A stretch of DNA of 64,000 bases from Mycteria americana (lineage: Eukaryota > Chordata > Aves > Ciconiiformes > Ciconiidae), in NCBI RefSeq assembly GCF_035582795.1, contig NC_134373.1, forward strand, positions 25,948,501 to 26,012,500, written 5' to 3'. Shown here in pieces: positions 1 through 57,858 of this stretch. The notes below the pieces were generated by a model. The model was given only the letters and a program-made list of their open reading frames with translations. It made no database searches and was not told the DNA's origin. The position numbers and the translations under genes are program-made. How positions within the stretch are numbered: the first letter of the stretch is position 1; each line of letters opens with the position of its first letter.

Positions 1-2066
1 TTTACTCATTCCCAGGAGGAGGCATGAGGGACCAATTCGGCTCAGAGAATAGGAGTAGGAGGCTCCAGCTGCAAATGATGTGATGCCTCAACAGGTCCTG
101 CTGCTGCCTGGCAAGGCTTTGGGATGTGGTATGCGGCAGACAGAGGTCACATCTTCCCCCATCCCTCCCCACACCCATGTCTTCCAGCCTCTGCTGTCCC
201 AGGTTCACCCCTTTGCTCCAGGCAAGTGAGAGGTGATGGGGCCCCCCCTTTCTGCTGACAGCCCCTGATGCCTCAAAGGCCGGGCTGGAGGGCTGAGCTG
301 GGGACAGAGGAGCGGAGGCTGCAGGAGCCCTGGGCTCCCCTTCCTTGGGCCAGGGGCCGGGGGTCGGCCAGCACTAACCATCCTCATGCCTGAAGCCTGC
401 TCCAGTGCACAGCGACGGCACACCAGAGCCCGGCTGCCTGGGCATCCCCAGGGCAGACCTGTAAGCAGCTGAGGCAGGCAGGCCAGCTGGTCCTGTACAA
501 CCACCCGCTGCTGAGAAACTGGGTCCCGATGACTGTCCTGGCAGTCACCCTCCTCTGCTACTCAGCATGGTGCACGCCATGCACCGTGTCCACGCTGTGG
601 GAAGCTTGTACCCAGCCCCATCCGCCTGAGCTCTGCCCTGCCAGCCTCGCAGCACGGCTCAGCACACGCCAAATCCCATTGCCGTGCCGTGTCGCTGCCC
701 GGCACAGCGCTGGGCTCGCTGCCTCCTCTGCAAGCCAAAGCTGTGCAGGATCCCCCAGGAGGACCCTGGGGCTGGAGCCAGCGTGGCCGAGCCACGTGCA
801 GGACTGTCCAGCACCAGAGCTCCCAGCCCCGCCGAACCGCGCTTCTCCCCGGCAAACTCAGGCAGCTGGCGCAGAGCAGGCACAGAGCCCAGCAAAACCC
901 CGGGAGGAGCGGGGCTGCCCCCCTGCTGCCCCCTGCTCCTTCCCACTCCACTGCAGTGCCCCATGCCACCCCCCCGCACAGGGCAGCCCCCCCGAAACGG
1001 CACTTCCCCGGGGACAGCATCACCCTGCGCAGCGAGCAGGCGTCGTACTGATGGGCATGAAGTGAAACAGGACATGCTGCATCAGCCATTTCCAGCCCCA
1101 CGAAGCCTCCTCTCCCCCTCCCAGCATCCCGCACAGCCCGTGGCATCGCATCCCCCTCCCCGGCACGGAGCGGGCTCCGGCTGGCAGCGCTGCTCCCGGG
1201 AGCGCAGCAAGCCAGCCGAGCAGTAGCCCCTGGCAGCCGTAGGAGAGAGGCGGCTCATTTCCAGAGTCATTATGGGCTGAAAAGGGTCCCATCAGGTATT
1301 CCGCCCGTTCAGCACATTTATTTTCCCAAACCACAGCAGGGATTTCTGATTCCAGGCTCAATATTAGCGAGGGCTGCACGCTGGCGGCGCCCGGCCAGGA
1401 GCTCGCTGCCTGGGCAGGCAGGGTGCTGCTGGGAGGAGGCCCTGCTAGCAAGCCCTGGGCACCGAGTGGGCAGCCCCGGGCAGCCCCCCGCTTGCCCAGC
1501 CATAGCTGTGCCTCCGGAGCAGAGCCGCTCGGGGGGGGGGTGGTGCACACACGTGAGTATGCAATGCTGGCAGCCTCCAGGATTCACACACATCCCAGCG
1601 CCAACCCCCCCTAAACACAGGAGGGCTCCCCTATGTGCGAAGGGGTCTCAGCCCCCCCCCCCATCCACTCTCGCTGTGCAAAGCACCCTGCGACAGAGCA
1701 CTTCAACCCAGGGGGAAGCACAGGCTGGACCGGGGCTCTACACCACAGCTTTCCCCCTGCCTGCCGCACACCCACCCCGGGGACCACTGAGCCCCACTCC
1801 CCTCCACCCCAGCTCCTGCCTGCAAGCCCCTCTGGCATGGACCTGCGGGCAGCCCGGTCCTGCGGTGCAGAGCCCTACCGAGAGCTCCCACGGAGGATCC
1901 TCTCACTCTCTCCGTGTGAAAATTGGAGGGAAACTCAAACAGAGAGAGATGCAATCTTCAGCAGCCGGAGCGAGCCAGGGAGCCCTGCTCCGGCGAGGCG
2001 TGGCAGGGTGGGTGCCCCCTGCCCCGGCGGGGGCCCCCGGGGAAGCTGAGCCAGGCGTGCACTCAC
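1..2066 (-). other. ASIC4: ASIC4 intron 1, 5' part (non-coding)
   Basis: This stretch follows the GTGAGT donor of the proximal ASIC4 first exon and runs off the left edge of the window. ASIC exon 2 normally begins V-F/Y-T-R-Y-G-K-C-Y-x-F-N, and I find no such coding stretch here in any frame, so the acceptor must lie beyond base 1. Long open frames here on both strands reflect GC richness only. I see no repeat or RNA gene. Confidence 0.7.
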
Positions 2067-2642
2067 CACAGTGAAATCGCGGGAGGAGCAGTTCTCGCCG
2101 CTGAAGTTGCAGCTCTTGAGCATGTCGTCGAGCTGGTGGCCGGTGCGGTTGACGATGTCGGCCATGTCAGGGTCAGGGTAGAGCAGGTCCGTGGCCTTGT
2201 GGCCGTCCCGGTCCTTGGGGGGCAGCCCAGTCATGTTGGCCAAGTGGAAGATGTCGGCGTCGGTGAGCGCCGAGTGGCGGTAGCGGTTGATGTTGCAGAT
2301 GGTGATGGCGGGGAAGACCATCTCGCGGATGGCCTCCTCGTCCAGGGCCATGACGTGAGGGTGCTCCAGGTAGAGCAGCGCTGACTTGGCCGCCTGGTAG
2401 AGGAAGAAGGCGAGCGAGGCCAGGAAGGCGAACGCCCAGAGGGTCTGGCGCACGCCCAGCCGCCCCGACCGGCAGATGTGTCCCAGGCCGTGCAGCGTGC
2501 TGGCGCTGGCGAAGGCGGCCAGGTCCCGGGAGCGGGGCCGGGCGGGCTCCTCGATCAGGCTCTCCTTATCCCCTTCTTCTTTCTCCTTCTGCTTCTCATC
2601 CTCCTCGGCAAATTTGATTTTACACACGATCTCAATCGGCAT
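2067..2642 (-). CDS. ASIC4: ASIC4 proximal (canonical) first coding exon, partial gene
   Basis: First coding exon of acid-sensing ion channel 4, a plasma-membrane member of the ENaC/degenerin family; ASIC4 itself is known as poorly proton-gated and modulatory. The exon encodes 192 residues. Start was set at the Met of MPIEIVCKIKF, the conserved ASIC4 N-terminus; an in-frame Met 18 codons upstream is not part of the family sequence. Visible features: acidic/Lys-rich cytosolic tail (12-32), the 'STLHG' gating motif with His-Gly at 51-52, TM1 at about 68-88, then the start of the extracellular domain with FPAITICNINRYRHS and GLPPKDRDGH. N-glycosylation sequons are NMT, NRT and NFS. The exon ends D-F-T-V, followed by donor GTGAGT (2061-2066) in phase 0, so the next Val comes from exon 2, outside the window. 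The gene runs leftwards in the same direction as GMPPA and SPEG. An alternative first exon lies 36 kb upstream. Confidence 0.95.
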
Positions 2643-37115: not shown

Positions 37116-38600
37116 TGTTGACTCTGGAGCAAAGAGGAGAGGAGGGAGAAGGTGGCTCCCTCTTGGCCATCGCCCCTGCCCTGCATCCCCACGCAATGCC
37201 CACCAACGCACCAGGGTGACCTGCACCCAAGCCCTGCAGTGCCTGGCTGGGCACCAAGGTCTCCGCGGCTGGTGGGGAGACAGTGCGGCCCCCGGGGAGA
37301 CAACGGAGGGTGGCACGAGCCCGGCTGCGGCAGCGGCCACGGCCCTGCATGAGCTGGCCCGCGCAGGCGGCTGCGGGTCCCCCCTTGCCAGCGGCGCTCT
37401 CCTGGCACACGGCCGTGCCTCCCGCCAGCTGCCTGACACCTGGTCGCAGGGCCCCGCGTGGCAGCCTTGCTTTGTTCTCATTAGTGCAATGAACGGAGCC
37501 GTCACGCTAAATTAGGGACCCTCCCGACACACAGCTCTGCATCTGCCAAGCCGGCAGCGGCTGCCGGCCAGGAGAGCCCGGCACGGCGGCAGTGGGCACC
37601 CGCTCGGTGCCCCGGGGAGGCTGCAGGCAGGGATAGGCAGCACTCCAGGCTGCCCGCCAGCCAGCGGCACGGCAGGGCCGGGGCACCAGCTCCCGGCATG
37701 GGGTGCTGGCCTGGCACAGCCCTGCCTGCCCCTGCCCCTGACCGTTGGCTCTCCCCACACCAGCGGGGCACGGGTGGCTCCCTGGACCCCTATGCTGGGG
37801 CTGTGGCTCCCCGCAAGCCCCCCACCACTCTCCCTCACCCTTGGCCGAGCTGGGATCATGCAAACCTGTGCCAAGCACCTGAGGCAAGGGCGCTTGTGTG
37901 GCGTCCATCACTGGGACATTCATGAGCTTTTGTAATTCTTCCAGCTCCGATAACGCTGGAGAGCTCAGCCACCTCCCTGTGCCGGTGCCCACAGGCATCT
38001 CCCCACGCCGGCTGGGAGGGCAGGATTGTACCCCTCTCTGCTCACTTACGCTACTGCTTGGATGCAGCCCATCCCCTGGCCCCTGCTCTGCTGGGACGGG
38101 ATGTGCCTTTCCAAAGCCCTCCAGGCAGGGATTTGCCTTCCCTCCCTCCGCAAGCCCTCGGGAGCCTGGCTCTCCCGCAGAGCCCGCCAGAGGGGTACGG
38201 AGCCAGGCTTCCCAGCCAGGATGGAGCAAGGCTGCGGGTCGCAGCCTGCCTCTGCTGGGGCTGAGCCAGCCTGGGCAGGTCCCAGGGCTCCCCAACCCGT
38301 CCTTTCCCTGCACCTCTCAGCCCAGCTTCACGGCACAAGCCCTGCTGGAGCATCCCCAGCCCAGCGCACCCCTGCTCTGCACAGGGCTCTGCCCCAGCCC
38401 CGACAAACCCCACGTCAAACCAGGCAGCCTTACAGCCTGCAAAAAGTGGCCCCTGGCAGCTTTCCCCTTCCCTGATCCCTGGTCACCGGGGGCTAGGATC
38501 CCCTTCTCAGCACCCCAGCAGTGCCCGGGCTGTGGGTGCCGGCACAGAGGCCGTGCCCAGCCCCCCTGCCCCCCAGGACATCCTGCCACTGGGCACTCAC

Positions 38601-39254
38601 TGTCTGGAAGTCGCTGCTGTTGCACTCCTCATCGCCGAATGTGCAGCGGACAAGCATCTCGCCCAGGTCCAGCTGGTGACCCACGCGCCCATAAAACTCC
38701 TCCAGGTTGAAGGGGCGGCTCTTCTCCTCCTCGCTCGTGGCCAGCTTCCCCAGCAGAGCCTCCAGCCTGCTTCTCTCCGTGCTCTCCAGCACCAGGGGCT
38801 GGCCAGCCCCGTCCAGGAGACCCAGCATCTCCCCTGCCCAGTACAGGTCGTGGCTGGAGAGCTGCGAGAAGCGGGCAGGGTTGAGGTTGCAGAGCGTGAC
38901 GGCGGGGAAGGTCTTGTTGCATGCCGTTTCCTCCTCCAGCTGGGTGCTGTGGGGGTACTGGAAGTACAAGCCCATGCACTTGGCGTAAGCGTGGACGAGG
39001 AGGGCCAGCGAGCCCAGGAAGGCCAGCAGCCACAGCAGGTTGCGGGCGGTGTAGCGTCGGTGCCGGAAGATATGCTGGATGCCGTGGAGGGTGGAGTGGC
39101 CGGCAAACTCCTCCAGGCTGCACGGGCGCTGCTGTGGGGCTGGGGCATCGCATGCTGGGTGCCCGGCGGGACAGCCCCCCATGGGAAGGGCTGCTGAGGG
39201 CTGGGGGGGACCCCAGGGGTGTGGAGGGGGCCTCCGGGCTTCCTCCAGCCACAT
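38601..39254 (-). CDS. ASIC4: ASIC4 distal alternative first coding exon (ASIC1a/2a type)
   Basis: A second first exon for an acid-sensing channel, 218 codons from the Met chosen here (MWLEEARR; a further in-frame Met 61 codons upstream and one at residue 25 are possible). Visible parts: Pro-rich cytosolic tail, 'EEFAGHSTLHGIQHIF' with the His-Gly gating motif at 57-58, TM1 at about 72-92, then KTFPAVTLCNLNPARFSQLSS, the hallmark post-TM1 segment. This order and spacing, with 'DLYWAGEMLGLL' and 'RPFNLEEFYGR', resemble ASIC1a/ASIC2a exons more than canonical ASIC4. It ends D-F-Q-T and then donor GTGAGT (38,595-38,600), phase 0, matching the proximal exon exactly. No second set of ASIC exons follows before the proximal exon, so I infer it splices to the shared exon 2 left of the window. 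A separate tandem ASIC gene is the alternative but would need exons that are not seen. Confidence 0.85.
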
Positions 39255-45870: not shown

Positions 45871-46340
45871 CTTCTCTGAGAAACACCCTCTGCTCCCTGT
45901 GCACTGGCAGAGCGTGGAGCTCAGCCCCATCGGGGTGCTGCCAGCCTGTCCCAGCCCCCTGCCAGACTCTGTCCCCAGGGGGGACCCTGCCCCAGGGCAG
46001 CCTGGTGCCCAGGGCAGCAGCACCCCATAAGGCAGCATTCCGGCCAGCATCCCCAGCACCACACAGTCCTGCAGTGACCCTGATGAGGTTCAGTCCTTGG
46101 GGTGGGGTCCGTGCTGCCTGGACCCTAGGATGTAGGGGTGCTCCCCCATGCCCCTCGCTTGTCACTGCCTGGGCCCTGTGTGGGACCGGCGCGGGGAGAG
46201 GAGCCTCTTGAACCTGCAGCCGCCCCCGAGAGGAAACCGGGAGGGGGGGAACCTGCTGCCGCATGCCCACGGGGTGCAAAACCCCTTCTGCAGGACAGAG
46301 GCATGCAGGCAGGTGTGAAGGCAGGCGAGGGGCCTGCGAG

Positions 46341-46445
46341 CGTGTGTGTGTGTCTGTGTGTGTGTGTGTGTGCGTGTGTGTGTGTGCGTGTGTGTGTGCG
46401 TGTGTGCGTGTGTGTGTCTGTGTGTGTGTGTGTGTGCGTGTGTGT
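46341..46445 (+). repeat. (TG)n/(CG TGTG) microsatellite
   Basis: About 105 bp of alternating purine-pyrimidine dinucleotides (mostly TG, with CG interruptions and two TC). Such tracts readily adopt Z-DNA and are usually length-polymorphic. It lies 1.0-1.1 kb upstream of the RACGAP1-paralogue ATG and yields spurious Cys/Val or Thr/His ORFs. Confidence 0.95.
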
Positions 46446-46499
46446 CACGCCCAGCCTTGCCGCCAGCCCCGCTGCTATTCCCGGTATTCCAAGCAGGTC

Positions 46500-47474
46500 G
46501 GGACAGGCAGCGAGGAGTGGGAGCTGCCGTTCCCCGGGGCCCCCCGCAAACCCGCCCGGAGCCCCCGCGGGGACGCAGGGCCACCAGGACCTGGGGGGCT
46601 GCGGCGGGGAGGGGGTCCCGCGGCTGGGAGCTGCTCCGCGAGCCCCTGGGCAGGGGCCCCGGGGGGCACAGCACCCCCGCAGCGCCGGGCAGCGGCAGGG
46701 CTTTGAGGCGGGGAGGTGGCTCCATCTGCAGGACACGGCCCCGGCCGGGAGCCCCGGTGCTGGGGGTCCCCGCCGCCCCAGGCAGCCGCCAGCCGCTTTG
46801 CATGCAGGGCACAGCGGCGGGGGACAGCGGACAAGGACACCGGCTCCTCCGGCTCCTCCGGCCCCCACCCACGCCGCTCCCGGGAAGCGGGGCTGGGGGA
46901 AGCGGTGCCGGGAGCCAGCCCCCTCCCGCACCCCCGCACCCCCAGAGCACCCCGCGCCCAGCGCTCCCGCCCGACACCCCTGCACCCCCAGAGCGCCCCG
47001 AACCCACTGCGCCTGCACCCCTCAAGTGCTCTCATCTGGTACCGCGCTGCCGGGGCACCCCGCCTCCAAAGGCGACCCCCACCCAGCACCCCCATCCTGC
47101 CCCGGGCTCTTGCCCCGCACCCCTGCAGCCAGCACTGCCGCCCCGCACCCGGGGCACCCCACGCCCAAGGCTCCCGGGAGGGCTCCCCCCGGCCGGGAGC
47201 CGTCGGGGCGACGGGCCGGGCCCCGGTCGCAGCGGCAGGCGGAGGCGGAGCCGGGCCGGGCTCCACCCCGGCCCCCGGCCCACATAGGCCGGCCGGGAGG
47301 GCCCCTCGCTCCCGGAGCCTGCGCCGTCCCGGGGGCGGCACGGCGGACCCCGGTGGCTGGGGGAGAGCGTGGGGCAGGAGCTGGGGGGGGCCCCGGGAGG
47401 GGTGGGAAGGGGTGGCCGTGCTGCCTGCCTCCAGGGGGGCTGCGGGGGGTCCCGTCCCGTCCCAGGGCAGCGGG
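46500..47474 (+). promoter_or_regulatory. CpG-island promoter / 5' UTR of the RACGAP1 paralogue
   Basis: About 1 kb of very GC- and CpG-rich DNA runs into the first coding exon. It includes C-rich imperfect repeats (GCACCCC/AGAGCACCCC units, about 46,920-47,130). Continuous open frames here are compositional, since none continues meaningfully into the conserved coiled-coil protein. No TATA box or CCAAT box was found close to the ATG. Confidence 0.5.
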
Positions 47475-50400
47475 ATGCTGCGGCAGCGCTGCGGGCGGCT
47501 CCTGGCCCGGCTGGAGCGGGCGCTGCAGCTGCTGGAGCTCGGCGGCAGCGCGGAGGAAGGTGGGTGCGCGCAGCCCCTCGGCCTGGGGCACCCCGGGACC
47601 CCCAGCTCTGCTGCCAGCGGGTACTGGGGGATCTGGGGGCCAGCCCCCCCCCATTCCGGCTGGCCACCTGCTTGTGTTGCCCCCAGACTACATCCAGATT
47701 GCTCGGCGCTTCGAGGCGACGCGCCAGAGATGCTGCCGCCTGGAGCAGGACGGGCGGCGGGCCCGCGAGCAGCTGGCCCGCGTGGAGGCTGAGCGGGCAG
47801 CGCTGGAGGTGAAGCTCAAGCACGCCCGCAACCAGGTGGAAGTGGAGATGAAGAAGCGGCACCGGGCGGAGGCTGAGCTGGAGAAGCAGGTCCGGGGGCT
47901 GGCTGCAGGCGTACCCCACGGGGCTGGCTGCGGGGACCCCAGCCCGTTCACCGCTGCCCCATTTCGCTTGCAGGAGCGCAAACTTCAGCTAGTCTTCGAG
48001 TCCCTGATGCGGGAGCCGTGGGGCAGCGGGGTGCTGAGCGGGGAGCAGCGGTCCGTCCTCAGCGCCCTGGCCAGCCGGCGCCTCGGGGCAGCCCTGGCAC
48101 CGGGCAGGAGGTGAGCAGGGCTGGCGGTCCTCACCCCAGCCCCTCGGGCAGCCCTGGGCTCAGCCGTGACCCTCTTCCCCTCACCTCTGCTAGGCTCGGG
48201 CTCTGGCTGGGCACAGGGGTGCTCGGGCTCTGCAGAGGTGCCCACTCTGGGCTCCCAGGAGCGGCTGTACGAGTAGCTGCTGGCCGGGGGAGGTTGCCCC
48301 GGCCAGGCTGACCCCCAGCTTGCTCCACAGGTCGTCTATGGTAGACGAGTCGTGCCAGTCCCTCCTGTCCCACTCGGACATCAGCTACGACCGCACTGAG
48401 GACGATGTGGTAAGGAGTGACCCCCTGCGAATCCCAGGGTTTGGCTTGTCCCCAGCAGCAAAGGGGTGGTTTTGCCCCACTCCCGCAGTGGGGCAGCCCC
48501 TTTGCATGGCCATGGTTGGGGGTGGGCAGCTGTCAGAGCCAGAGCACGGATGCTGGGGGTGCCCCGGCCCCGTGCAGCCCTGCCAGCCCGCAGCCTCCCT
48601 GTGCCTTTCAGGATGTTGATATGACGGTGGTGCGGACCCTGAAGCGCAAAGCCCAGGAGAGGCAGGTACGGGGGACATGCTGGGGTGCAGCAGCCCTGGG
48701 GGCTGGTGCTGAGGTGGAGCGTGTGCCCCTGCGTGGGTGAGGATCCCCCAGGTCTGCTCTGCTCTCCTGCACTGTGCCTGTGGGACCCCTTGCCCGCACA
48801 GATCAGCAGCCCAGGCTGGGGTGCTGGCCCTGAGCCACACAGGGTTAGGGCACCCAGATACTTCTCCGTCCCCGTGCAGGAGGCTGCAGGGAGCCTGACA
48901 GGGGGGTTAATTTATTGATGCTGGGCTGGGAGCGTCGTCTCTCGGCAAACCTCCTGCGATCAATAGAAACTCCATTACCCTCCACTGTGGCCCAGCTGGG
49001 CTCCTCAATAATTCATCCCCACATGCAGGCATCCTGCACCCCACTCTGCTCACACCTCTGCATTGCAGGCCTGTCCTGGCCTCCCCCAGCCCCTGAGCTG
49101 GCTCCAACCCCGGTGGGGGACCTGGGTGCCCACGGGTCCCCGCAGTGCCTGGTGTGGGGCAGGGTGAGACCGGGACCTTTTGTGGGGCTGAGACCACTTG
49201 GCTTGGGTGCTCTGGGGTGGGGGGGGGGAGAGTCAGGGAGGGGGTCCCTGCCTACCCTTCACCCCATCTGCTCTGTCCCCAGCGTGTGTCCCTGGCCCCT
49301 CAGATCGGCCCCGTGGTGGTGGCGAAGCGGCACCGGTCTTCTGTGGCACCCCACAACACTGTGAGTAGGGACCTGTGCCCTGGGCAGGGTGTTGCCAGAA
49401 GACAACACCGAAACCTTCAGTCGTGTGGGGCTGTGGGGTCTGGGGGTGCTCAGCTGTCCCCTCTGGATGCCTGTGCCCTGCAGCCTGTATCCCCCCACGC
49501 CCATGGTGACAGCATCCCAGGCTGTGCAGGACCACGGGGATAGGGAGCAGGCAGAGCAGAGCTCGTGGGGAGACGTTGGAGCACCATGGTGCTGCAGCCA
49601 TGCACGTTCTCACTGCTCCCCATCTCAGCAGGCGAGTGTGCCAGCCGTGCCCCCTCCCGATGAGGTCCCAGGCCCTGCTGGCAGCCTCCCGCCCGCTGCT
49701 TTGGTGCCACGCCGCTGCTCTCGCCAGGGACACCGTGCCTCCACGCGTGCAGGTCACGGGAAGGGCTGGGGAGGGGGCTCATGGGTGGTGTGGGACCAGC
49801 CTCAGGGTGCTGCTGTCATGGGGGAGGGAGGGGATCTGCTGGGGCATGATTGTCCCCACCACGGGGGTACTGGGGTCCTCTGGACATGCCAAACGCCACT
49901 GTCCCAGGGCAGCCGGGGTGCTGCAGGGGCTCCCTGGGAGGTGGGAAGCCTCCCTACATCCCAGCCAGGAGCTGGGGCAGTTTGCCTTTCAGGGCCCCCG
50001 CCACTGCCTTCTCTCTCTCTGCAGAGCTGACCACGGTGTGGGGCACCAGCGAGGATCCGGGCTGCCATGGCCCAGGGCAGGAGAGCCACACCGAGGGTGG
50101 CTCCGCAGGGCAGCCAGTGCCAGCCCCCTTCCTCTCGCCTCCACAGGGCCTCCCGCAGCTCCAGCACCAGTTCACCTCCAAAACGGTGCATGCCCTGGCC
50201 TCTCTCCCTCCTCTTGGCCGCTACAGAAAAGGGAGCGGGGCAGGGGGAGTGGGTCTGGGGGGGGGAGCAGGGGGGCAAAGCTCTCCTCCATCCCCCCACC
50301 CCAGCTCTGCCAGCACGGGGGATGGATGGAGGCGGTGGGGGCTGGTTTGGGTGGGATGAAGGAGTGGTACTGGGTACGTGCAAGAAGGGGGGGCCCTGAC

Positions 50401-52073
50401 TCTGCTACCCCTCTCCAGGTGATCCGCCCCGAGCCGTGTGGCGTCTGCGGCTCCCGCGTCCGCTTTGGGAAAGCTGCCGTCAAGTGCCGCCAGTGCCAGC
50501 TGCTGCTGCACCCCAAGTGCCGGGAGCAGTGCCCCGGCCCCTGCGCGCCCCGGCCTCACCACCACGCCTGGCCCCGCGAGGTGAGGGGGGGCCCGGCGGT
50601 GCCTGGGGGCTGCTCCATGGGGCTGCCGGGCTATCAGCCCTGGGACGCTGGGGCTCCGCTCCCGGCACAGAGCGGGTTGGCGTTGTCCTCCCCAGGGCGT
50701 GCTGGCTGACTTCGCCCCCCCCGCACCGCCCCTGGTGCCCGCGCTGGTGGTGCAGTGCGTGACTGAGGTGGAGACGCGAGGCTTGACGGAGGTAGGGGCC
50801 GGGGCGGCGGGGGCGGCGATGCTGTGGTCCTCGCGGGGCTGAGCCGCTCTCCCTGTGCCCCAGACGGGGCTGTACCGGGTGCCAGGCACGGAGCAGCTGG
50901 TGCGGGAGTGGAAGCGGAGGCTGCTGCGGGCAGGAGGTGCGCTGCCCGCCCTCGGCAGCGTGGCTGACATCCACGTGGTGTGCGGGGTGCTCAAGGACTT
51001 TCTGCGGGGGCTCAAGGAGCCGCTGGTCACCTTCAGCCTCCACCCTGCCTTCCTGCGGGCTGCTGGTGAGCAGGGGTCCCAAGCCAGGGGGGTGGGAAGG
51101 GGCTGCTCCTCTCCTAACACCCCTCCCCGGTGCTGCCGCAGACATCCCGGACGATGCCGCCTGCGACACAGCCCTGCGCCACGTGGTGAGCAAGCTGCCC
51201 CCGGCCAACAGGGACACCCTGGCCTTCCTCATGCTGCACCTGCTCAGGTGAGGGGCTCATCCCGGCACAGTCTCCCATGGGTCTGTCCCCATCTCCTGGC
51301 TCCCTGCTGCCCACCCAGGCTCCATGCCCCAGAGCGGGGAAGCCGGGCTGAGGATGAAGGGCCCCTTGGCCGGGCAGCGTGCTCACACCGTCCATCCCCC
51401 CTTGCAGGGTGTCGCGCAGCCCTGACTGCAAGATGGACGTCTTCAACCTGTCCCGCGTGTTTGGTCCCACGCTGGTGGGACACAGCTCGGCCAACCCCAC
51501 ACCGCTCGCCATCATGGAGGACACGCCGCGGCAGTGCAAGGTGAGGGGGTCCCCAAGGTGTGGGGTGTACCCCGGGTGCTGCCGGCATCCCCATCCTCAA
51601 TCCCTCCCTGCTCAGGTGGTGGCTCGGCTCCTCTCGCTGCCGCCCGACTTCTGGAGAGGCTTTGTGGGGACGGAGCAGGAGAACCTGGTGCCGACATCAG
51701 CCCTAGGGGACAAACGCGGTGAGGCACAAGAGCCCCGGCCCCCTCCCTGCCCTTGCCCTGTGGCTGCTGAAAGGTCCTGGGTGCCCACAGCTGGGCTGGG
51801 GTGTGGGAACTGTCCCCCGCCCTGTCCCACAGAGCCGTTCTGCCGTGTCGCCTCCCCGGAGCCCAAGCCGGGCCAGCTGAGCCCAGCTGGCACCTGCTGC
51901 CTCCCCAGCACCCTGCGGAGCTGCGTGGGCATGGCCGCCCGGCCCCCGTGAGTGCTGCCGGGTGTGGGTGGGGGCCCAGGGGAGCTCGCTTTGCCCCCCT
52001 GACTCATCTCTCCCCACGCAGGCAGGGGCCAGCGCCGAGGAAGGTGGGTCGGTTCTTCCCTTCTCCGGTGTAG
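47475..52073 (+). CDS. RACGAP1-like: RACGAP1 (MgcRacGAP/CYK-4) paralogue, complete, 16 coding exons
   Basis: RACGAP1 pairs with KIF23 in centralspindlin and acts on Rho GTPases in cytokinesis. Coding exons read: 47475-47559, 47687-47889, 47974-48110, 48331-48409, 48612-48665, 49283-49360, 49629-49752, 50025-50185, 50419-50580, 50696-50791, 50864-51065, 51142-51247, 51408-51540, 51616-51718, 51833-51947, 52022-52073. They join in frame to 629 aa plus stop; human RACGAP1 is 632. Order: N-terminal coiled coil with 'VKLKHARNQVEVE' (about 80-92), 'SSMVDES'/'DISYDRTED' phospho-region (about 142-166), diverged Pro-rich middle, C1 zinc finger (301-349, all His/Cys ligands spaced H-x12-C-x2-C-x12-C-x2-C-x4-H-x2-C-x7-C), RhoGAP domain (about 363-553) with arginine finger R398 in TGLYR, and C-terminal 'VGRFFPSPV'. 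Exon 7 has a CAGCAG acceptor (one Gln optional). Exon 2 uses a weak GTCCGG donor. RhoGAP identity to human RACGAP1 is only about half by eye from memory, so this is a paralogue rather than the orthologue. Confidence 0.92.
48895..49030. promoter_or_regulatory. AT-rich candidate element inside intron 5 of the RACGAP1 paralogue
   Basis: Within the largest intron (48,666-49,282) lies GGTTAATTTATTGATGC, GCGATCAATAGAAACTCCATT and CTCAATAATTCATCCCC, followed by a CATGCAGG. It is the only AT-rich stretch in this gene, with no splice-site-bounded frame, so an intronic enhancer (possibly serving ASIC4) is more likely than an exon. Inferred. Confidence 0.3.
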
Positions 52074-52253: not shown

Positions 52254-52259
52254 ATTAAA
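52254..52259 (+). terminator. Poly(A) signal ATTAAA of RACGAP1 paralogue
   Basis: ATTAAA sits 180 bp after the stop codon, followed within 30-60 bp by TG-rich sequence (TGGCTGTGGCTACTGTCTGTCC), a plausible cleavage context. It is the first recognised hexamer after the stop. Confidence 0.6.
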
Positions 52260-54329: not shown

Positions 54330-57300
54330 TCACAGGATAATCTGGTTCTTGTAGCTGCGGCTCAGCTCCTTGTGAGGAAGGACGATGGAGTTGAGAATAA
54401 CGACCTCAGCAGGGATGGTGACGCTGCAGCCTGCGGGGAGAGCGTCAGTGGGTTAGCAGGAGGGGAGAGACTCTGCCCCACTGCATGGGGCCAGGGCAGC
54501 TGGGTGCAGGTAGGACGTACCCAGGATTGTGATGGATGGTGTGAGGCGCCCGTCCCGGAAGAGGGTCTCGCTGTCAATCTTGGCATAGGGATCGTTGGGG
54601 TTGGGGTCACTGGGCGTTCCTTCAACCCGGGCCCAGCGCCCGATGGTGCTGTCCCAGCCCACGATGGTATTGAGGACACAGGTGTGGTCCTGGGGCAAAG
54701 GAGTGGAGGTGAAGGGTGCTGCTGCCTCCCTGCAAGGGGTAGGGGTTGACAGCCACACCCTCAGACAAACTCTACTTACATGGAGCGAGGCGCCGTGCAG
54801 GACAATGGACTCTCGCACACGCACACCAGCTCCTACCGTCACCCCCTCCCCAATGGAGACGTTGGGGCCCAGCTATGAGGACAGAGGGAGGTGATAAGGT
54901 CAAGGACAACGGCACCCTCAGCTCCCCTGAGCGTCACCCTGCTGCAGAGTCCTGCAGGCCTGCACTCACCACCGCAGTGCTGTCGATGGAGGCTGTTGGG
55001 TGGATGTACACGTTCCCTGCAACACAAGGCAGCTGTGTCAGGAGAGGCAGCTCACATGAGCACCCGCCGCTCGGATCAGGGGAGGTCCTGCCCATGGGTT
55101 CCACTTCCTCCCAAGGCTGCCCTGTCCTCACACGGGGCAGCCCCCAAGGCAGTGGGGGGTGTCAGAGGGGTACCTCGGATGACAGGGCCTCCAGGCTTGT
55201 TCTGGGCCAGCCTCTCCGGGTGGCTTTTGCTGTACTGGTTCAGGTAAAGGCGGCTGGCATAGATAGCAGAGCTGGAGGACGAAAAGCAAACGATTGTTAT
55301 TACCTCTCTGGCACTACCAAGGCAGAGGAGGGTCTGAATTCAGCACCCCCCACCCACCCCTGGGCCCCCTCATCTCCCATCTCTGGTACGGACCACTCAA
55401 TGCCCCTGCTGCGCTAGCTCTAGCCCCAGCCCTTACCCTGCTGATTTGATCTGGCTCCAGAAGCCATCCGTTTTGTAGACATAGAGCTTGCCGCTCCCAG
55501 CCAGTGCCGTAAAAACGTCTTGCTCTAGCCGGATCACTTCTGCACGCTGCCAGCCATTGGAGCTCTCCTCTCTGCAAGCGAGAGGCCCGTTAGACACCCA
55601 TCCCAGTTCACGGCCTCAGCCAGGGACCCAGCAGCTACCCTCCCCAAATCTGCGGGCTCCAGTGATCCTGGACTCCTTCCCAGCCATGCACTTCCCCCAA
55701 AGGTGGGGACAGCCCCAGCCATCAGGCTAGGCCTGCCCAGCCCTGCTGAGCCCCACAGCGGCAGAGGGATGGGGCTCTGCCAGCTGAACCAAGCTCTTAG
55801 CCAGAAGTTGATGGTGCAAGAGCCCCACCCAGTCCAGGTGGGTGTACGAGCACCGCAGCGTACAATCCTGCCCCCGTTCCAGAGCCCTGCACAGCTGGAT
55901 TTTTGCTTGGGTGGTGGTGGAGATGCCAGGTGACAGGCTGCTGGTGCAGAGAGCTGGAGGCGGGAGCAGAGCATTCCCAGGTGAAAGGCCTGCTCAGCCC
56001 CTTGTCCAGAGCTCAATGAAGATGGGGTGGGAGGAGAGGAAGGGAGAGGGGGAGTCTCAAGCTGGCCAGGAGGGGAGCAGAGGAAAGAGCAGCCTTGCAG
56101 AGTAGCCTGGAGCAGGGACGAAAGCATGCATTTCTGCTAGGGACAATCCAGCCCGGAGAGCAGCCAGTGCAGACACAGAGGGAGACTTACCCAAGGTAAG
56201 GACAGCTGGTGCAGGACCAGGAAACAAGTGGGTGATGGCAGAGGAGAAGAGAAGATAGAGAAAGAATGGAGGATGAGCGTGCTGCTGCAGCCCCAGGAAA
56301 CAGTGGGGTGGGAGGGACGTGGGGCAGAGAGAGGCACTCACAGCACTAGCTCCTGCTGGTTCCTCTGGAAGACCTCGCCAATGTGCTGGAAGATGTCAGG
56401 CGTGAACAAGTAGATGCCACAGTTAATGATCTCACTGACAAACGTGCTGGGCTTCTCCACGTAGTGCTGGACCTGGAGGCGAGGGCAGAGATGCGAGTCC
56501 CTGGGTGCAGCCCCCACAGCTGGCGTCACACACCCTCTGCAGCATGCCGGGAACACGCGCCCACACTGTGCCCGCAGCTGGGCTGCAGGTGCCCGCAGCA
56601 CCTGCTGCCCACCCTGTGCCCGGCTCCCTGAGGCCCTCCAGTACCTCCTGCGTGTCCGCGTTCGCCACGATACAGCCATAATTCAGCGCCTGCGTCCTGT
56701 TGGCCTGCAGAGCAAGGATGTGTTAGCAATGGTGGAGCAGCAGGCATGCGGATGCAGAGCAGATGAGACCCGGAGCTCGCACCCAAGGACCCATCCACCG
56801 CAGGAGCCACTGGCTTCTAGATGAGCCCATGGCAGAGCACCGCTGCTCCTCTGCTCCCCAGCACTGCCACTCACTGTGGTACCCAGAATGACAAAGCTGT
56901 GCGCATCCCCGTGCTGCTGCCGGAACTCCAGCATCTCCTGCAAGGGGAACTCTGAGCACACGTCCGCGTTGAGGACAAAGAAGGCCTCAGCACCACCCGA
57001 CAGGATCTGGTCTCGGAAATGATAGATGCCACCACCCGTGCCCAGCGCCGCGTACTCCTGGAGATACCTGCGAGCCAAGCAGGGAAAAGCGAGGGCTTAG
57101 GGAAGCGGGGGTCTGGTGGCACCGCCCGGCAGCAGGGCAGGGAAGGGCTGGCGAGACAATCCTGCCACGCAGCGATGGGGTTCACGTGGATGTCGGCACA
57201 GGGGAAGGAGGCAGTGGCAGCTTGGAGCTGTGCTGGAGAGGCATCTTTGGAGCAGGAGCCAGCCAGGGCAGGGCCCAGGGCAAGCGAGATTTGGCAGAAC

Positions 57301-57858
57301 TAATGCAGGATGCCCGCTGTGCCCACCCACGCTGGGACACGGCCCACCTGCCCAGCGCCCAGGCTCTGGCTGGGGACTGCCAGCCCGGGGGAAGCGGGCG
57401 AGGGGCCGAGCCGGGCTGTGCCGCCACGGGTACCGCTGGGGCGGGAGGGCTCCTGCCCACCTGATGGGGATCTTGAACTCCTGCTGCGCCGACACCAGGA
57501 AGCGGCTGAGGGCCTCGTGGGGCTGGTAGAAGCCCATCAGCAGGATCTCCTTCATGCCGGGCACCTGGCGCGGGCGGCAGGGAGCCGAGTGGGGAGGGCG
57601 GCCCCGGCCCCGGCCCCGGCCGCCCGGCCCCAGGCCCGGCCCCCCGTACCTTGGCGCAGGCCTCGATGTGGTGCTGCACCATGGGCACCCCGGCCACGGG
57701 GAAGAGCGGCTTGGGCACCTCGAAGGACAGCGGCCGGAACCGGGTCCCTGCGGAGCAGAGGCGGGTGGGCGGGGGCCGGCGCCGGCGGGACGCCCCGCGG
57801 GCCGGGCGCACTTACCCTTCTGCGGGCCCCCGATGAGGATCACCGCCTTCAGCGGCAT
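54330..57858 (-). CDS. GMPPA: GMPPA, GDP-mannose pyrophosphorylase alpha subunit, complete, 12 exons
   Basis: Cytosolic partner of GMPPB, which makes GDP-mannose from mannose-1-phosphate and GTP; GMPPA is known as the catalytically weak, GDP-mannose-sensing regulatory subunit. Coding exons, 5' to 3' on minus: 57816-57858, 57650-57747, 57461-57564, 56875-57067, 56645-56704, 56342-56472, 55437-55571, 55174-55271, 54970-55016, 54780-54872, 54521-54689, 54330-54430. All junctions keep frame and give 423 aa (human 420). Visible: nucleotidyltransferase loop [13 protein letters not shown] (10-22), '[12 protein letters not shown]', '[15 protein letters not shown]', '[13 protein letters not shown]', '[19 protein letters not shown]', then the left-handed beta-helix repeats beginning [12 protein letters not shown] and [13 protein letters not shown], and the C-terminus [13 protein letters not shown]. 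Residues after NQQELVL (EESSNGW) replace a different human insertion and are the least certain part. The intron at 55,572-56,341 holds nothing visible. SPEG lies 0.8 kb upstream on the same strand. Confidence 0.97.

What the first reader, a model, noticed from the sequence alone, without database searches (positions are those of the whole stretch)
47475..52073. Intact RACGAP1 duplicate between ASIC4 and GMPPA
The sequence shows a full-length, frame-perfect 16-exon centralspindlin-type RhoGAP gene with every C1 ligand and the arginine finger. From memory, the mammalian GMPPA-ASIC4 interval has no such gene, and its divergence from RACGAP1 proper is too large for an orthologue. I infer a second vertebrate RACGAP1 kept in this lineage and lost in mammals. 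A second CYK-4 could serve germline, neuronal or polyploid cells.
Basis: partly seen in the sequence, partly recalled or inferred. Interest (0 to 1): 0.85.

Follow-up and report, generated by a model that had tools for sequence, protein, structure and literature searches.

The report
Second RACGAP1 from ancient genome duplication
This bird-like genome carries, besides the usual cell-division gene RACGAP1, an intact second copy that most likely dates from the whole-genome duplications at the origin of vertebrates, so a protein that cell biologists treat as single-copy seems to have an overlooked sister in at least some animals.

Summary
Observation confirmed. Window 47475-52073 (+) holds a 16-exon, 629-aa gene ("RG2"), all introns GT-AG, with C1 and RhoGAP domains, all C1 zinc ligands and the arginine finger. 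It is not the RACGAP1 orthologue: canonical RACGAP1 (16 exons, 631 aa) lies on contig C26; the two share all 15 intron phases. In the GAP domain canonical RACGAP1 is 86% identical to human, RG2 55% to either. RG2 is head-to-head with ASIC4, as RACGAP1 is with ASIC1; hedgehog, filament and WNT genes also recur near both. That fits the HOXD/HOXC paralogon, so RG2 is best read as a 2R ohnologue kept here and lost in mammals (the loss rests mostly on recall). The locus is not unknown: a chicken study lists a "RACGAP1" on chromosome 7, like ASIC4; another puts RACGAP1 on chromosome 33. Likely function: a second centralspindlin GAP that keeps the ECT2-docking serine and arginine finger but lacks Aurora B site S387 (now Pro). 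Expression and function untested. Real, moderately interesting, new member of a known kind.

The parts
47475..52073 (+). RG2, second RACGAP1/CYK-4-type gene. CDS exons: 47475-47559, 47687-47889, 47974-48110, 48331-48409, 48612-48665, 49283-49360, 49629-49752, 50025-50185, 50419-50580, 50696-50791, 50864-51065, 51142-51247, 51408-51540, 51616-51718, 51833-51947, 52022-52073
   Evidence: 1890 nt, 629 aa, all GT-AG; same 15 intron phases as canonical RACGAP1
47687..47889 (+). exon 2: most conserved N-terminal (coiled-coil, presumed MKLP1-binding) segment
   Evidence: 34 of 67 aligned residues identical to canonical RACGAP1; the MKLP1-binding role of this region is recalled for the family
48331..48409 (+). 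exon 4: PLK1/ECT2-docking segment; S160 (48383-48385) aligns with human S157, S149 with S149, D167 with S164; T173 (= S170) is in exon 5
   Evidence: alignment (human sequence recalled); sites and the role of S157 from PMC2680336 and PMC2680334 (passages)
50165..50547 (+). C1 domain (residues 301-350), split by intron 8, all zinc ligands present
   Evidence: Pfam C1_1 2.7e-08; 4b6d 5.2e-19
50738..51486 (+). RhoGAP domain (residues 376-522); arginine finger R398 at 50876-50878; P400 at 50882-50884 in place of human S387
   Evidence: Pfam RhoGAP 9.5e-37; alignment
52254..52259 (+). ATTAAA, candidate poly(A) signal
46601..48100 (.). CpG-rich, very GC-rich stretch over the gene's 5' end
   Evidence: GC 0.70-0.83, CpG observed/expected 0.63-0.72 in 300-base bins
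38586..39128 (-). ASIC first-exon-type exon resembling ASIC1a exon 1, head-to-head with RG2
   Evidence: tblastn 1.9e-42 with recalled ASIC1; PF00858 4.2e-23
2046..2642 (-). ASIC4 first coding exon
   Evidence: 66% identity to recalled human ASIC4, 3e-69
54333..57852 (-). GMPPA exons (downstream neighbour, tail-to-tail with RG2)
   Evidence: tblastn with recalled human GMPPA, best piece 5.6e-51

Best explanation
RG2 is an intact second CYK-4/MgcRacGAP gene, the ohnologue of RACGAP1 from the early-vertebrate whole-genome duplications (2R), sitting in the HOXD-side paralogon beside ASIC4 while RACGAP1 sits in the HOXC-side paralogon beside ASIC1. It persisted in the bird lineage and was lost in mammals. 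Shown: gene structure, domains, paralogy, shared intron phases, paralogous neighbours. Inferred: the protein pairs through its N-terminal coiled coil with the kinesin MKLP1, recruits ECT2 after PLK1 phosphorylation (S160 = human S157), touches membrane by its C1 domain and stimulates GTP hydrolysis by Rac1/Cdc42-type GTPases with R398. It should be insensitive to the Aurora B switch reported at S387, and its S164-equivalent is a fixed Asp. Because RACGAP1 does the housekeeping work, RG2 is probably used in a restricted set of cells. I put the 2R origin at about 0.9, a working GAP protein at about 0.75, and a centralspindlin role in restricted cells at about 0.5.
For: Intact 16-exon frame. 15 of 15 intron phases match RACGAP1; 13 of 15 positions fall in the same alignment column, the other two lie next to gaps. 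The whole-genome search with a 492-residue RG2 query gave 16 matches: 11 RG2 exons on C9, 4 of one gene on C26, and 1 weak RhoGAP match on C4, 28% identity. GAP identity: RG2-human 107/195, RG2-RACGAP1 107/195, RACGAP1-human 168/196. RG2 is equidistant from human and same-genome RACGAP1 (259 and 256 of 604 columns; two-against-one patterns 19 and 16 against 260, human sequence recalled). Head-to-head RG2/ASIC4 and RACGAP1/ASIC1; SMARCD1 follows ASIC1 on C26 (recalled probe). Hedgehog genes: three loci in the genome, C9:26.23 Mb, C26:2.13 Mb and C2. Filament genes at C9:26.05 and C26:2.16 Mb and WNT genes at C9:26.37-26.40 and C26:2.08 Mb, among others elsewhere. Beyond this genome: chicken 'RACGAP1' on chromosome 7, where ASIC4 also lies, and RACGAP1 on chromosome 33. 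Chicken line polymorphism in the chromosome 7 gene, N/S count ratio 0.6, fits constraint.
Against: The AU test on the GAP domain does not reject a bird-lineage duplication (p 0.12). Filament, WNT and ASIC genes also occur on other contigs, so those pairs are less telling than the three-member hedgehog family; HOX genes were not searched. No genome of another vertebrate class could be searched, so age and mammalian loss are not shown by sequence. No transcript evidence. The chicken polymorphism test is weak (3 N to 5 S inferred from printed ratios, P 0.039 or 0.063 by mutation model), and that chicken gene carries a splice-donor variant between lines. Exons 6, 7, 8 and 15 are poorly conserved (13-27% identity).
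Confidence: 0.78

Rival explanations
1. A later, bird- or sauropsid-lineage segmental copy of RACGAP1 that landed beside ASIC4 and evolved fast.
For: The AU test on the GAP domain does not exclude it; RG2 is a long branch (0.50).
Against: It would have to land by chance next to the paralogue of RACGAP1's own neighbour, in the same head-to-head orientation, in a block with further paralogous neighbours. RG2 shares no excess of states with same-genome RACGAP1 over human RACGAP1 (16 against 19 columns).
Confidence: 0.08
2. RG2 is a dispensable gene on its way out: frame still open in this individual, but little expressed or already non-functional in some birds.
For: No expression data here; weakly conserved middle (exons 6-8); splice-donor variant reported in the chicken chromosome 7 gene.
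Against: Sixteen intact exons with arginine finger and zinc ligands; chicken N/S ratio 0.6 is below the neutral expectation, though weakly.
Confidence: 0.15
3. RG2 is functional but no longer in centralspindlin: a Rac/Cdc42 GAP for neurons or another post-mitotic role.
For: Loss of the S387, S410, S214 and T260 equivalents (the last two lie in poorly aligned exons). A review reports one fly study in which the orthologue's GAP activity serves axon growth while being dispensable for division.
Against: The same review cites a second fly study that found the GAP activity necessary for cytokinesis. Exon 2 of the coiled-coil region and the PLK1/ECT2-docking exon 4 are well kept (51% and 50%), which points to midzone partners.
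Confidence: 0.2
4. RG2 is simply the RACGAP1 orthologue of this species, moved and diverged.
For: Chicken annotation used in one study called a chromosome 7 gene RACGAP1.
Against: A complete canonical RACGAP1 with the neighbours ASIC1 and SMARCD1 is on C26.
Confidence: 0.01

Closest known systems
RACGAP1 / MgcRacGAP / CYK-4 (GAP subunit of centralspindlin)
   Same: Order of N-terminal coiled-coil region, PLK1-site segment, C1 and RhoGAP; 16 exons with the same 15 phases; arginine finger; ECT2-docking serine; C-terminal FFxSP
   Different: 42% overall identity to the C26 gene (252/607); S387 to Pro, S410 to Gly, S164 to Asp; S214 and T260 not kept; GC3 0.86 against 0.53; other contig, beside ASIC4
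Chicken chromosome 7 'RACGAP1' (ENSGALT00000018359, PMC4835825)
   Same: Name, and chromosome 7 with ASIC4, SPEG, OBSL1 and DES in the same gene lists; presumably the orthologue of RG2
   Different: Not compared by sequence here; adjacency to ASIC4 is inferred from the close transcript numbers; named like the canonical gene, which another chicken study places on chromosome 33 (PMC10286233)
Chimaerins CHN1/CHN2 (C1 + RhoGAP)
   Same: C1 followed by RhoGAP; 31-33% identity in GAP
   Different: The branch between RACGAP1+RG2 and the other RhoGAPs, chimaerins included, has 100/100 support; SH2 domain, no CYK-4 coiled coil (recalled)

Membership tests
RACGAP1/CYK-4 family | C1 domain followed by RhoGAP, most similar to RACGAP1 among RhoGAPs | tested here: met
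   best PDB matches are human RACGAP1 for both domains
RACGAP1/CYK-4 family | N-terminal coiled-coil region homologous to CYK-4 | tested here: met
   exons 1-3 align, exon 2 34/67 identical; coiled-coil propensity itself was not computed
RACGAP1/CYK-4 family | Catalytic arginine finger | tested here: met
   R398 = human R385
RACGAP1/CYK-4 family | PLK1 consensus serine that docks ECT2 (human S157) | tested here: met
   S160 in DISY; role from PMC2680336 (passages)
RACGAP1/CYK-4 family | Aurora B site S387 | tested here: not met
   Pro400. A review states that this serine is not universally conserved, so it does not define membership
RACGAP1/CYK-4 family | Binds MKLP1, localises to the spindle midzone, GAP activity | not testable with these tools
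   Needs protein work
RACGAP1 orthologue | Groups with RACGAP1 of other amniotes, and no other canonical copy in the genome | tested here: not met
   Canonical gene on C26; human+C26 clade 89.7/90
2R ohnologue of RACGAP1 | Lies in a block paralogous to the RACGAP1 block | tested here: met
   ASIC, hedgehog, filament and WNT genes near both loci on C9 and C26
2R ohnologue of RACGAP1 | Duplication older than the bird-mammal split | tested here: inconclusive
   Tree favours it; AU p of alternatives 0.12 and 0.15; column patterns symmetric, 19 and 16
2R ohnologue of RACGAP1 | Present in several vertebrate classes | not testable with these tools
   No vertebrate genome other than the window's own could be searched; chicken is known only from papers

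The most novel reading that the evidence does not exclude
Birds, and perhaps most non-mammalian vertebrates, build two kinds of centralspindlin: the standard one with RACGAP1 and a second with RG2, whose GAP is free of the Aurora B switch and which carries one built-in acidic mimic of a PLK1 site, used in special divisions such as those of the germline or polyploid cells. Work on RACGAP1 in chicken cells has then run with an unrecognised second GAP in the background.
Probability: 0.3. Interest if true: 0.75.

Novelty: new member of a known kind. Interest (0 to 1): 0.5.

Why it matters
RACGAP1/CYK-4 is treated as a single-copy essential gene (recalled), and how far its GAP activity and its Aurora B phosphorylation matter is disputed (review passages). 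A natural, long-lived second copy that keeps the arginine finger and the ECT2-docking serine but has Pro at S387 is a ready-made variant for that dispute. It also warns that 'RACGAP1' in chicken data can mean two genes: one study scores a splice variant in a chromosome 7 gene, another a between-line differentiation signal in a chromosome 33 gene and cites a muscle study under the same symbol; in passages of that muscle study and of two oviduct RNA-seq papers the symbol appears without a chromosome. Conditional MgcRacGAP knock-out DT40 cells exist; DT40 is a chicken line (recalled), so what RG2 does there can be asked directly.

Tried and rejected
Orthologue hypothesis: rejected (canonical gene on C26). 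Retrocopy: rejected (15 introns kept). Other GAP family (chimaerin): rejected (tree 100/100). A cell-cycle promoter element (TTTGAA/TTCGAA/TTCAAA or CCAAT/ATTGG) in the 1000 bases above the RG2 start codon: none found; four such words lie within the 1500 bases above that of RACGAP1. The stretches differ in length and base make-up and such short words are weak evidence, so I draw nothing from it. A first gene model with wrong exon ends and a first RACGAP1 model with exon 2 starting two bases too early were discarded and redone; the alignments and identities are void. Recalled GPD1, AQP5 and FAIM2 probes found nothing in the fetched C26 (100 kb) or C9 (124 kb with the window) stretches; a tubulin probe found nothing in them either. 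Paper searches for RACGAP1 with ohnolog, for RACGAP1 with 'lost in mammals' and birds, and for RACGAP1-like/RACGAP1L/paralog names gave no paper on this gene; led to the chicken papers; two searches looked for the DT40 work (one found nothing). Passages of PMC7115952 added nothing. I did not try structure prediction.
Full report
Observation. The finding is correct to the base. Splicing sixteen exons, all introns GT-AG, between 47475 and 52073 gives 1890 nt and 629 aa without interruption. Pfam finds C1 (residues 301-350) and RhoGAP (376-522), both over their cut-offs, and the closest PDB chains for both domains are human RACGAP1. Every C1 zinc ligand is present at the spacing seen in human RACGAP1, and the arginine finger is R398. 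I call the gene RG2.

Canonical copy. A search of the window's whole genome (1.35 Gb, 279 contigs) with a 492-residue RG2 query (exon 7 and most of exon 8 left out) returned 16 matches: 11 are RG2's own exons on C9, four belong to one other gene on C26, and one is a weak RhoGAP match on C4, 28% identity. I modelled the C26 gene from translations: 16 exons, C26:1558367-1552033 on the minus strand, 631 aa, all introns GT-AG. It is RACGAP1 proper: its GAP domain is 168/196 identical to the human one, while RG2 is 107/195 identical to each. RG2 and RACGAP1 share all 15 intron phases, and 13 of 15 introns fall in the same alignment column, the other two lying beside gaps. Over the whole length they are 252/607 identical, with exons 2, 4 and 9-13 best kept (48-58%) and exons 6, 7, 8 and 15 worst (13-27%). 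So this is a duplication of the gene with its introns, neither a retrocopy nor a displaced orthologue.

Age. On the GAP domain (7 sequences: RG2, C26 RACGAP1, and human RACGAP1, CHN1, CHN2, ARHGAP15 and ARHGAP5 from printed PDB alignments), human and C26 RACGAP1 group against RG2 with 89.7/90 support, but the AU test leaves the two other topologies open (p 0.12 and 0.15). Across 604 full-length columns (human sequence recalled) RG2 matches human RACGAP1 at 259 and C26 RACGAP1 at 256; columns where two agree against one number 260 (human = C26), 19 (human = RG2) and 16 (C26 = RG2). RG2 is thus no closer to the copy in its own genome than to the human one, as expected if the duplication came before the bird-mammal split. 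Equal distance alone would also fit a duplication close to that split.

Neighbourhood. This is the strongest evidence. On C26 RACGAP1 (minus) stands head-to-head with ASIC1 (plus, exons from 1574665 to 1591770), and SMARCD1 follows (recalled human probes), the order I recall for human 12q13. In the window RG2 (plus) stands head-to-head with ASIC4-locus first exons on the minus strand (39128-38586 and 2642-2046), with the shared ASIC4 exons further out on C9. GMPPA lies tail-to-tail downstream. Beyond that, the genome's three hedgehog loci are C9:26.23 Mb, C26:2.13 Mb and C2. Intermediate-filament exons that I take for desmin and peripherin lie at C9:26.05 and C26:2.16 Mb, and WNT genes at C9:26.37-26.40 and, one, at C26:2.08 Mb. 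Filament, WNT and ASIC genes also lie on several other contigs (for filaments with clusters on C22 and at C26:0.26-0.50 Mb that I take for keratins), so these pairs count for less than the hedgehog pair. The names IHH/DHH, DES/PRPH, WNT6/WNT10A and WNT1/WNT10B are recalled, not tested, and HOX genes were not searched. Together this fits the HOXD/HOXC paralogon known from the early-vertebrate genome duplications (recalled). An ASIC gene with RACGAP1 at its head, duplicated as a block, explains what is seen. RG2 is therefore best called a 2R ohnologue of RACGAP1.

Other species. No other vertebrate genome could be searched. The literature gives an independent anchor. A chicken study lists 'RACGAP1' (ENSGALT00000018359) on chromosome 7, in gene lists that also hold ASIC4 (ENSGALT00000018356), SPEG, OBSL1 and DES of chromosome 7, with a splice-donor variant between its lines (PMC4835825, passages); that the two lie side by side is my inference from the transcript numbers. 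Another lists RACGAP1 on chromosome 33 (PMC10286233, passages). So chicken very probably has both genes, and the chromosome 7 one was named as if it were the only one; I have not compared its sequence. Chicken RNA-seq papers that report RACGAP1 among cell-cycle genes (PMC6678745, PMC6237962, PMC8088581, passages) show no chromosome, so they tell nothing about RG2. The first study's table gives a non-synonymous to synonymous SNV ratio of 0.6 and dN/L of 0.001808, which fits 3 to 5 over a 1659-nt CDS (my inference). Against a neutral expectation of 69-73% non-synonymous, computed on RG2's own codons, the chance of 3 or fewer in 8 is 0.039 to 0.063, a weak sign of constraint. For mammals I have only recall and a cattle paper that names the GMPPA-ASIC4 interval, where a gene model overlaps GMPPA and ASIC4-AS1, and that does not mention RACGAP1 (PMC11796172, passages and term counts). 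My paper searches showed no paper that describes this gene as a RACGAP1 paralogue; the library holds open-licence papers only, and beyond the listings I looked only at the passages named here.

Mechanism. Four putative PLK1 sites of human CYK-4, S149, S157, S164 and S170, are described as well conserved, and pS157 is reported as the primary ECT2 docking site (PMC2680334 and PMC2680336, passages). RG2 has S149, S160 in DISY, D167 and T173 at these places: three remain phosphorylatable and one is a fixed acid. The Aurora B site S387, whose role is disputed and which is not universal (review PMC6784142, passages), is Pro400, and S410 (an Aurora B site by recall) is Gly424. S214 and T260, also reported as PLK1 sites, are not kept, although they lie in poorly aligned exons. 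My reading: RG2 can still enter centralspindlin and recruit ECT2, and has a working GAP, but its GAP is not tuned by Aurora B at S387. Since the C26 gene covers general cytokinesis, RG2 probably serves particular cells. That last step is inference without expression data.

Verdict. It is a new member of a known kind, interesting because the family is thought of as single-copy and because the natural variant bears on open questions about CYK-4's GAP domain.

Noticed in passing
window 38586-39128 (-); C9:25927274-25927783 (-), outside the window: The ASIC4 locus carries three ASIC first-exon-type exons: the normal ASIC4 one (2642-2046), one 36 kb upstream resembling ASIC1a exon 1, and one just before the shared exons. 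ASIC1 on C26 has two (1574725 and 1588505). This suggests alternative first exons that predate the ASIC1/ASIC4 duplication, with a third in ASIC4.
   Followed up: partly
The one unit read shows a RhoGAP over two exons, TAGAP/ARHGAP20-like by eye and recall only (fetched). An amplified RhoGAP family worth its own study.
   Followed up: partly
window about 46330-46450: A GT-type simple repeat lies about 1 kb upstream of RG2, seen only as CVCVCV runs in the ORF list.
   Followed up: no
window 49629: Exon 7 acceptor is a tandem CAG|CAG (NAGNAG), so RG2 may occur as 629- and 628-aa forms (sequence).
   Followed up: no
window 47475-52073 compared with C26:1552033-1558367: GC3 of RG2 is 0.86 against 0.53 for RACGAP1, although RACGAP1 sits on a 2.99-Mb contig, where higher GC might have been expected.
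   Followed up: no
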